Shown here piece by piece: positions 32,159-33,358 of a stretch of DNA of 44,933 nt. The notes under the pieces were generated by a model. It worked only from the letters and a program-made list of their open reading frames with translations. It made no database searches and was not told the origin of the DNA. The stretch is from Acidimicrobiaceae bacterium (GTDB taxonomy: Bacteria; Actinomycetota; Acidimicrobiia; Acidimicrobiales; Palsa-688): assembly GCA_030838045.1 (NCBI GenBank), contig JAUTXN010000043.1:1-44933 (forward strand). The letters run 5' to 3'. Position 1 is the first letter of the stretch, and every line of letters begins with the position of its first letter. The translations under genes and the position numbers were made by a program.

Positions 32159-33358
32159 GTGCAGCTCGTTTCGCAGGTTCCGACGCGCCCAGTGCTGCTG
32201 GTGCTCGACGACAAGGAGGGCAGCATCGCCGACCGGCTGCACCGCGCCTCTCCTTTGGCCGATGTGGTCACCCGCGCCTCGTCCGAAGGGGCATGGAGCG
32301 CCCTGACATCGGGGCGCCGGTACTCGGCCGTGGTTGCCTTTGGTGTCGATCACGAACTGGCCGATGCGGCCACGCGCCTCGGCATTCCCGTGATCGGCGT
32401 CGGCCCGGAGTCGGCTACGGCGGAGAGAGATCTGGCCGCGACGATCGCAGCGGTCGCCGCCCCCGTGGCATGGGCGGACCACCCCAACGGATTGAGCTCG
32501 GCCCCGGCTTGTGCGGCGCTGTCTGATCGGCCGGGCGGGACCGGTCGCCTGCTCGCAGTGTGCGGCCCGGGCGGGACCGGTGCGTCATTGGTCGCCGCCG
32601 GTCTGAGTTGGGCATTTGGCTCAGCGGGGTGGCGGCGGCGCGTTCTCTTGGCGGATTTCGCCCGTCGGAGCGACCAGGCCTTCCTCCACGGGCTGGAAGA
32701 TCCGCCCGCCGGACTCCTCCAACTGGTGAACAGCGGCCGTTACCGCCCGATCGTGGCGGCGGACGTCCGCCGCCACACGCTCGCTCGACCGGGATTCCGG
32801 CTTCTGCCCGGCCTTCGCCGCCCCGCGCACTGGACGGCCGTGAGCCCGAGCGCCTTCGACCAACTCGTCATGGTGCTGCCCGAACTCTTCGACCTCGTCG
32901 TCGCCGACATCACCGGGGATTTCGAAGGTGAGGCCGACTCCGGATCGTGCGATGTCGAGGAGCGCAACCACATCGCCCGCCGGAGCGCTCGCGCCGCCGA
33001 CACCGTGGTCGTGGTCGGCGGTGCACGGACCAATGGTGCCCGCCGCCTGTCTCAGGTCGTCGACGAGCTGCTCGACCTGGGCGTCGACCCGGCCCGCATC
33101 CAACCGGCCGTCAGGTGTGATGAATTTCCGGTGTGTACGCACCGGAAATTCAGCAGGCCTAGCCGTATCTGCGGGCTCCCGTCCGCTCCGGTCGAGCTCG
33201 CTACCGTGGCCGGCGCTCCCGGCCGGCTCCTGCCGCCCGAGGCTGTCTGGCCGCTGGCCGAGGCCGTGACCGACCTGCTTTCGCGATTGCCTGCTCCCGA
33301 TCGCCGGCCGGACCTGGTGCCGGTCGTGCCCGGGTCGCTCGGCTGTCTGGCCCCGTGA
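32159..33358 (+). CDS. CpaE/MinD/TadZ-like P-loop protein with in-frame palindromic insertion
   Basis: LLAVCGPGGTGASLVAAGLSWAFGSAGWRRRVLLADFARRSDQAFLHGLEDPPAGLLQLV...; residues RCDEFPVCTHRKFSRP come from the palindrome. Confidence 0.75.
   Translation: MQLVSQVPTRPVLLVLDDKEGSIADRLHRASPLADVVTRASSEGAWSALTSGRRYSAVVAFGVDHELADAATRLGIPVIGVGPESATAERDLAATIAAVAAPVAWADHPNGLSSAPACAALSDRPGGTGRLLAVCGPGGTGASLVAAGLSWAFGSAGWRRRVLLADFARRSDQAFLHGLEDPPAGLLQLVNSGRYRPIVAADVRRHTLARPGFRLLPGLRRPAHWTAVSPSAFDQLVMVLPELFDLVVADITGDFEGEADSGSCDVEERNHIARRSARAADTVVVVGGARTNGARRLSQVVDELLDLGVDPARIQPAVRCDEFPVCTHRKFSRPSRICGLPSAPVELATVAGAPGRLLPPEAVWPLAEAVTDLLSRLPAPDRRPDLVPVVPGSLGCLAP
33113..33160. repeat. 48-bp palindromic element, copy 2 (44/48 identical to copy 1)
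   Basis: AGGTGTGATGAATTTCCGGTGTGTACGCACCGGAAATTCAGCAGGCCT; starts on a codon boundary of the surrounding ORF. Confidence 0.95.

What the first reader, a model, noticed from the sequence alone, without database searches (positions are those of the whole stretch)
33113..33160. Palindromic element inserted in frame inside a CpaE/MinD-like ORF
Copy 2 begins exactly on a codon boundary and is 48 bp long, so it adds 16 codons (RCDEFPVCTHRKFSRP) without breaking the frame. This resembles the logic of Rickettsia palindromic elements, which persist inside coding genes as tolerated peptide insertions. I know of no such element in this lineage, but I cannot search for one.
Basis: partly seen in the sequence, partly recalled or inferred. 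Interest (0 to 1): 0.85.

Follow-up and report, generated by a model that had tools for sequence, protein, structure and literature searches.

The report
Repeated palindrome inside a bacterial gene
A 48-letter mirror-image DNA repeat that normally sits between genes of one uncultured actinobacterium also sits, in reading frame, inside a real protein gene, where it writes 16 residues into a floppy loop; this resembles Rickettsia's gene-invading palindromes but is an unrelated repeat.

Summary
Window 33113-33160 is a 48-bp palindrome starting on a codon boundary of ORF 32159-33358 and adding 16 sense codons (RCDEFPVCTHRKFSRP) to a CpaE/MinD-like ATPase. It is one of 14 near-identical copies (plus one diverged) in this 4-Mb Acidimicrobiaceae MAG, and is absent from the same-genus genome and other relatives. 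The ORF is genuine: homologues match through both flanks to the same C-terminus, window-specific changes after the palindrome fall on codon positions 3/2/13, and an independent 99%-identical protein carries the same 16 residues. AlphaFold puts them in a disordered loop. The 'clean 16-residue insertion' fails: nearest relatives have 9-11 fewer residues there, and the loop varies from 6 to 21 residues family-wide. About 12 of 15 copies are extragenic; two others form protein C-termini. No Y1/RAYT transposase, GTAG/CGTC tag or target-site duplication was found. A second, unrelated palindrome family (P2) in the genus lies mostly downstream of genes and also has one in-frame copy, in a hydantoinase A gene. 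Best reading: lineage-specific REP-like palindromes, usually extragenic, occasionally tolerated in frame in variable loops. They work like Rickettsia palindromic elements there but are not members.

The parts
33113..33160 (.). P1 palindrome copy 2 (48 bp), in frame 1 of the CpaE-like ORF: RCDEFPVCTHRKFSRP; right arm belongs to the GTGCGT subfamily
32159..33358 (+). CpaE/MinD/ParA-like ATPase gene, 399 aa, hosting the palindrome at residues 319-334
   Evidence: fold matches ParA/MinD/FlhG/FleN structures
33107..33169 (+). length-variable loop between conserved PARIQP and CGLP (6-21 residues across relatives); contains the palindrome; AlphaFold pLDDT < 50 at residues 325-333
589..636 (.). P1 palindrome copy 1 (perfect 24+24), intergenic between a leftward gene (3-323) and a small rightward ORF (666-779)
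33364..34023 (-). endonuclease NucS gene, convergent with the host gene; its stop lies 203 bp from the palindrome; also adjacent in both G001 copies
10062..10105 (.). P2 palindrome (second, unrelated dispersed family) between convergent genes

Best explanation
P1 is a lineage-specific, REP-like dispersed palindrome (48 bp, 24-bp arms, no spacer) that multiplied in this genome but not in the same-genus genome G001. It usually survives only where it does no harm: between genes, often just downstream of stop codons, sometimes supplying the stop. Because it is 48 bp (3 x 16) and open in two of three frames, the same two on either strand, a landing in a gene is occasionally tolerated. In the CpaE-like gene it took the place of part of a length-variable loop after a beta-strand of the ATPase core and is read as 16 residues, with the downstream frame kept and conserved. 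Shown: the family, its absence at orthologous sites, the reality of the ORF and conservation downstream, the variable loop, and recurrence in other genes. Inferred: that it is copied as mobile DNA (mechanism unknown, no transposase identified), that the protein is made and works, and that the residues are neutral.
For: 14 near-identical copies plus 1 diverged in G000. Subfamily variants shared in either orientation: arm AGGCCTGCTGAATT[T/A]CCGGTGCGT in C79, C97, C196, C260b and C320, and arm TGGCTAGCTGAATTACCGGTGTGT in C151 and C236, pointing to copying from common masters. P1 absent at orthologous flanks in G001, from relatives, from GTDB contigs and viral contigs. Host ORF: about 75% identity to G001 through to the same C-terminus; pairwise dN/dS about 0.33 before and 0.24 after the palindrome; window-specific changes after the palindrome by codon position 3, 2, 13 (about 1 in 1000 under equal thirds, my arithmetic). 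Independent 99%-identical protein with the same peptide, cluster of 14 members on 2 contigs. Disordered loop, variable loop. Other coding landings: C44 tail, C360 tail, P2 in Hydantoinase_A. Changes on both sides in 4 arm pairs.
Against: No clean 48-bp empty site: G001 differs by 33 or 27 bp at this locus and by 0 bp at C44, so either insertion came with local deletion or the palindrome formed by replacement. No transposase, terminal tag or direct repeat was found. Translation of the peptide is not measured. The MAG is fragmented (380 contigs) and 90% complete, so an autonomous partner could be missing.
Confidence: 0.8

Rival explanations
1. P1 is a MITE made of two abutted terminal inverted repeats of an insertion sequence whose transposase moves it.
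For: Near-perfect inverted repeats, copying from masters, lineage-specific burst; at least one end reads TAGG/CCTA in most copies.
Against: No single-arm match at 0-1 mismatch apart from one asymmetric site (C311), so no element with these arms around a transposase is assembled. No direct repeats at the flanks and no clean empty sites. MITEs are usually longer (70-300 bp, PMC3733652).
Confidence: 0.2
2. P1 and P2 are functional hairpins (bidirectional terminators or 3'-end stabilisers) kept by selection; the copy in the CpaE-like gene would be a 3' signal of the convergent nucS gene that overlaps a coding sequence.
For: P2 lies between convergent (20) or tandem (29) genes and only once between divergent ones. 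P1 is within about 60 bp of a stop codon at most sites. Compensatory arm changes. Stable RNA folds of -30 to -40 kcal/mol. G001 has its own hairpins at the C44 and C151 sites.
Against: No T-run follows P1. Three P1 copies lie in divergent regions (kdpE/kdpF, nuoA, copy 1). The window copy is 203 bp from the nucS stop. Sequence identity far exceeds what a hairpin needs.
Confidence: 0.35
3. P1 is the operator of a DNA-binding protein, kept identical by selection rather than by copying.
For: Strict symmetry and a nearly invariant 30-bp core.
Against: Locations include convergent gene ends and coding sequence, flanking gene functions are unrelated, and asymmetric subfamily variants are shared between copies.
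Confidence: 0.07
4. The ORF is a pseudogene or an assembly artefact and the in-frame fit is chance.
For: Two of three frames are open in P1, so a chance fit is not rare.
Against: Conserved downstream frame with third-position bias and an independent 99%-identical full-length protein with the same residues.
Confidence: 0.04

Closest known systems
Rickettsia palindromic elements (RPE; Ogata 2000, 2002, as described in PMC10969869 and PMC3733652)
   Same: Dispersed palindrome that sits in frame in unrelated protein genes, adds residues at tolerated positions and leaves the downstream frame open.
   Different: RPEs are ~150 bp (or short CGTC-tagged types), with nearly half in genes; P1 is 48 bp without loop or CGTC tag, mostly extragenic, in a different phylum; no sequence relation found.
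GTAG/CGTC REP sequences and REPtrons (PMC3733652)
   Same: Short palindromes downstream of genes, between convergent or tandem ORFs, sometimes inside genes, sometimes giving the TAG stop codon to neighbours.
   Different: Stem of 22-24 bp versus 5-13 bp (GTAG) and 8-9 bp (CGTC); no constant GTAG or CGTC tag; no Y1 (RAYT) transposase found in this genome.
MITEs with in-frame ORF fusions (e.g. Coxiella QMITE1, ERIC; PMC10969869)
   Same: Inverted-repeat element producing translational fusions.
   Different: No autonomous parent and no target-site duplication found; shorter.
Coding palindromes of Nematomorpha mitochondria (PMC6649704)
   Same: Inverted repeats inside translated genes.
   Different: There both arms encode conserved residues and the repeats are much longer (up to 284 bp).

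Membership tests
Rickettsia palindromic elements | in-frame location inside real protein genes | tested here: met
   CpaE-like gene with conserved downstream frame; but only 1 internal and 2 C-terminal cases among 15 copies
Rickettsia palindromic elements | size near 150 bp, or CGTC-tagged short type | tested here: not met
   48 bp, no CGTC at the ends (PMC10969869, PMC3733652)
   net gain 27-33 bp against nearest relatives, loop length variable
GTAG REP / REPtron | GTAG tetranucleotide at one end | tested here: not met
   GTAG at the left end in only 2 of 14 copies
GTAG REP / REPtron | associated Y1 tyrosine transposase (RAYT) | tested here: not met
   PF01797 has no match in G000 while controls are positive; genome about 90% complete
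REP-like elements in the broad sense | dispersed short palindrome, mainly extragenic, many copies | tested here: met
   14 + 1 copies, mostly intergenic
MITE | target-site duplication and a related autonomous element | tested here: inconclusive
   no flanking direct repeats, no single-arm element; incomplete genome
Intrinsic terminator | GC-rich hairpin followed by a T-run | tested here: not met
   flanks show no T-run; termination without a T-run is not testable here
CpaE/MinD/ParA-like ATPase (host protein) | deviant Walker P-loop ATPase fold | tested here: met
   Foldseek best hits ParA, FlhG, FleN, MinD, E down to 1.4e-7; GPGGTGAS motif at residues 136-143

The most novel reading that the evidence does not exclude
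Palindromes in this genus are rewritten in place by a species-specific homogenising process (conversion, or co-evolution with a binding factor) rather than only inserted. P2 sites shared by G000 and G001 keep position and centre exactly but carry a different arm triplet in both arms, and at C44 the P1 palindrome takes the place of an equal-length, equally centred imperfect hairpin of G001. If the same process acts inside genes, it overwrites coding loops with palindrome sequence, which would explain the absence of clean insertions.
Probability: 0.2. Interest if true: 0.8.

Novelty: new variant of a known kind. Interest (0 to 1): 0.52.

Why it matters
In-frame selfish palindromes are known chiefly from Rickettsia and some REP-rich Gram-negatives. 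Two unrelated palindrome families in one actinobacterial genome, each with an in-frame copy inside a conserved protein gene, suggest that repeat-driven entry of new peptides into proteins is more widespread. With a same-genus comparator it becomes testable how such peptides enter: by insertion, or by overwriting variable loops. The species-specific arms at shared P2 sites offer a clean system for asking what keeps dispersed palindromes uniform within a genome.

Tried and rejected
P1 in plasmid and phage collections: none. GTDB degenerate P1 pattern: none. The core CCGGTGTGTACACACCGG gave 5 GTDB and 3 viral loci, of which only one (G032) is a longer palindrome, with different outer arms, judged not a P1 copy. 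PF01797 (RAYT/Y1): none. Direct target-site duplications: none seen. Clean empty site at the CpaE locus: rejected. Operator hypothesis: disfavoured on location and subfamily structure. Pfam gave no family for the host protein and NCBIfam only a weak BagA ATPase match; a fold search was needed. No defence-system match. A first alignment of minus-strand loci without reverse complementing gave nonsense and was redone. The first viral scans failed for technical reasons and were replaced by narrower patterns.

Full report
Setting. The window is contig C260 of a 4.0-Mb, 380-contig, 89.7%-complete genome called G000 here. The same-genus homologue is recorded as a protein of an 'Acidimicrobiaceae bacterium' (P0002; same protein length and contig length, 7783, as G001:C27), so the organism is an uncultured acidimicrobial actinobacterium.

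The observation. 33113-33160 is a 48-bp palindrome with no spacer, on a codon boundary, giving RCDEFPVCTHRKFSRP in ORF 32159-33358. Copy 1 (589-636) is a perfect palindrome and intergenic.

The family. G000 holds 14 close copies; two of them, C43 and C138, have nearly the same flanks and may be one locus seen at two contig ends. A covariance model adds one diverged copy, C360. The core is nearly invariant while outer arm positions vary, four pairs with changes on both sides. Arm variants are shared between copies in both orientations (AGGCCTGC...GTGCGT in five copies; TGGCTAGCTGAATTACCGGTGTGT in C151 and C236), which indicates descent by copying. The left neighbour base is T in 12 of 14 and C in 2; no direct repeats were seen.

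Distribution. No copy in the same-genus genome or in other relatives, none in GTDB or viral contigs with the tested patterns. The single G032 match shares only the 18-bp core and has other arms. In G001 the flanks of ten further sites besides C44 and C260b were located and aligned; none holds P1, although the alignment at C196 is weak.

Where copies sit. A codon-usage gene caller puts most copies between genes: between convergent genes (C151, C255), tandem genes (C79, C97, C204, C323), downstream of an sdhB-like gene (C138), and in divergent regions (kdpE/kdpF at C196, upstream of nuoA at C320, copy 1). C79 takes its TAG stop from the palindrome edge; at C255 the edge abuts a TAG stop that G001 also has; at C43 the neighbour's last codons and TGA stop run into the palindrome. 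Coding landings are three: C260b (this finding); C44, where the last codons of a mannosyltransferase-like gene are palindrome sequence ending at the same stop as in G001; and C360, where a 247-aa protein ends ...GAMDLRCAHTANPLHPTQLQPR. With coding density near 90% (general knowledge) a random scatter would put most copies in genes, so selection or targeting keeps them out.

Is the host ORF real? Yes. G001 homologues L052 and L039 match before and after the palindrome to the same C-terminus and lie next to the same convergent nucS. Pairwise dN/dS is about 0.33 before and 0.24 after. Among substitutions specific to the window in the 64 codons after the palindrome, 3, 2 and 13 fall at codon positions 1, 2 and 3; some may predate the palindrome. 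A separate protein (P0001; cluster of 14 members on 2 contigs, longest 24 kb) is 99% identical, 399 aa long and carries the same 16 residues, which argues against an assembly artefact.

Is it a clean 16-residue insertion? No. Between PARIQP and CGLP the window has 21 residues; the nearest relatives have 10 (P0002) and 12 (P0003, P0004); others range from 6 to 21, and P0009 and P0019 have 21 without a palindrome. So the palindrome occupies a loop that varies freely in length; the net gain is 9-11 residues, and either some loop codons were lost at insertion or the loop was overwritten. AlphaFold2 (24-sequence alignment, mean pLDDT 78.6) gives pLDDT below 50 for residues 325-333, shortly after the strand 314-319; the fold matches ParA/MinD/FleN ATPases. 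A position that tolerates extra residues is the simplest explanation of survival.

C44 needs separate mention. Between matching anchors G000 and G001 have the same 52 bp (counted on the alignment), and the G001 sequence is itself an imperfect hairpin with the same centre (-29 kcal/mol; 16/22 arm matches, a level seen about ten times in 157 kb). This fits replacement better than insertion but is one site among twelve inspected.

A second family. Scanning 527 kb of G000 and 250 kb of G001 for palindromes found P2 (GCCGGAGTACAAACCGTCGTGK plus its mirror, 44 bp), one copy of which is at window 10062-10105. Its half-site gives 44 hits in G000 and 29 in G001, and two isolated single-arm hits in 39 other relatives. 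P2 lies between convergent (20) or tandem (29) genes and once between divergent ones. Six P2 sites are orthologous with identical centre, but G000 has AAACCG and G001 AAAGTG or AAACTG in the arms. One P2 copy sits in frame inside a Hydantoinase_A gene (PF01968, E 1.6e-81) within a ~37-residue expansion flanked by conserved sequence. So an in-frame landing in a variable region has happened with two unrelated palindromes in this genome.

Mechanism. Most likely P1 is a REP-like element copied as DNA by an unidentified process and filtered by selection; 48 bp being a multiple of three and two open frames on either strand make occasional coding landings survivable. A terminator or 3'-end role is plausible for P2 and some P1 copies but not shown. 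A MITE origin cannot be excluded in an incomplete genome.

Comparison with the known. REPs inside genes, REP ends supplying TAG stops, and preference for convergent or tandem spacers are described for GTAG/CGTC REPs (PMC3733652), and RPEs put in-frame peptides into genes (PMC10969869). P1 lacks a constant GTAG/CGTC tag, has much longer stems, and no Y1 transposase was found. The GTAG/CGTC survey text does not contain the word actinobacteria. A 2025 REP tool paper lists a row of counts for Acidimicrobium, and a term search found no mention of intragenic cases in it (PMC12306157). So this is a new lineage-specific family working like known kinds, not a member of them by the tests above.

Noticed in passing
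window 10062-10105; G000 and G001 genome-wide (L264-L310): Second palindrome family P2, genus-specific, mostly at 3' ends of genes; six sites shared by both species have the same centre but species-specific arm triplets (CCG versus GTG/CTG), as if homogenised within each genome.
   Followed up: partly
L265 (G000:C58 near 44985): A P2 palindrome in frame inside a Hydantoinase_A gene, in a ~37-residue expansion absent from relatives.
   Followed up: yes
L082:579-626 versus L101 near 1680-1727: At the C44 site P1 occupies exactly the length of an imperfect hairpin with the same centre in G001, inside the last codons of a glycosyltransferase-like gene with a shared stop codon.
   Followed up: partly
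L156:1598-1645 (G000:C360): Diverged P1 copy forming the C-terminus of a 247-aa protein upstream of a creatininase-like gene.
   Followed up: partly
G032:C7:15401-15452 (L145, L159): Isolated 36-bp perfect palindrome sharing the 18-bp core CCGGTGTGTACACACCGG with P1 but with different outer arms, in another family of the same order.
   Followed up: partly
L218:13865, L220:11186 (G001) and L195:17673 (G000): Possible third palindrome type TTAGCACTACATGRCC...GGTCATGTAGTGCTAA in the genus.
   Followed up: no
window 1169-1241 and 1333-1405, minus strand: Two tRNA genes by Rfam.
   Followed up: no
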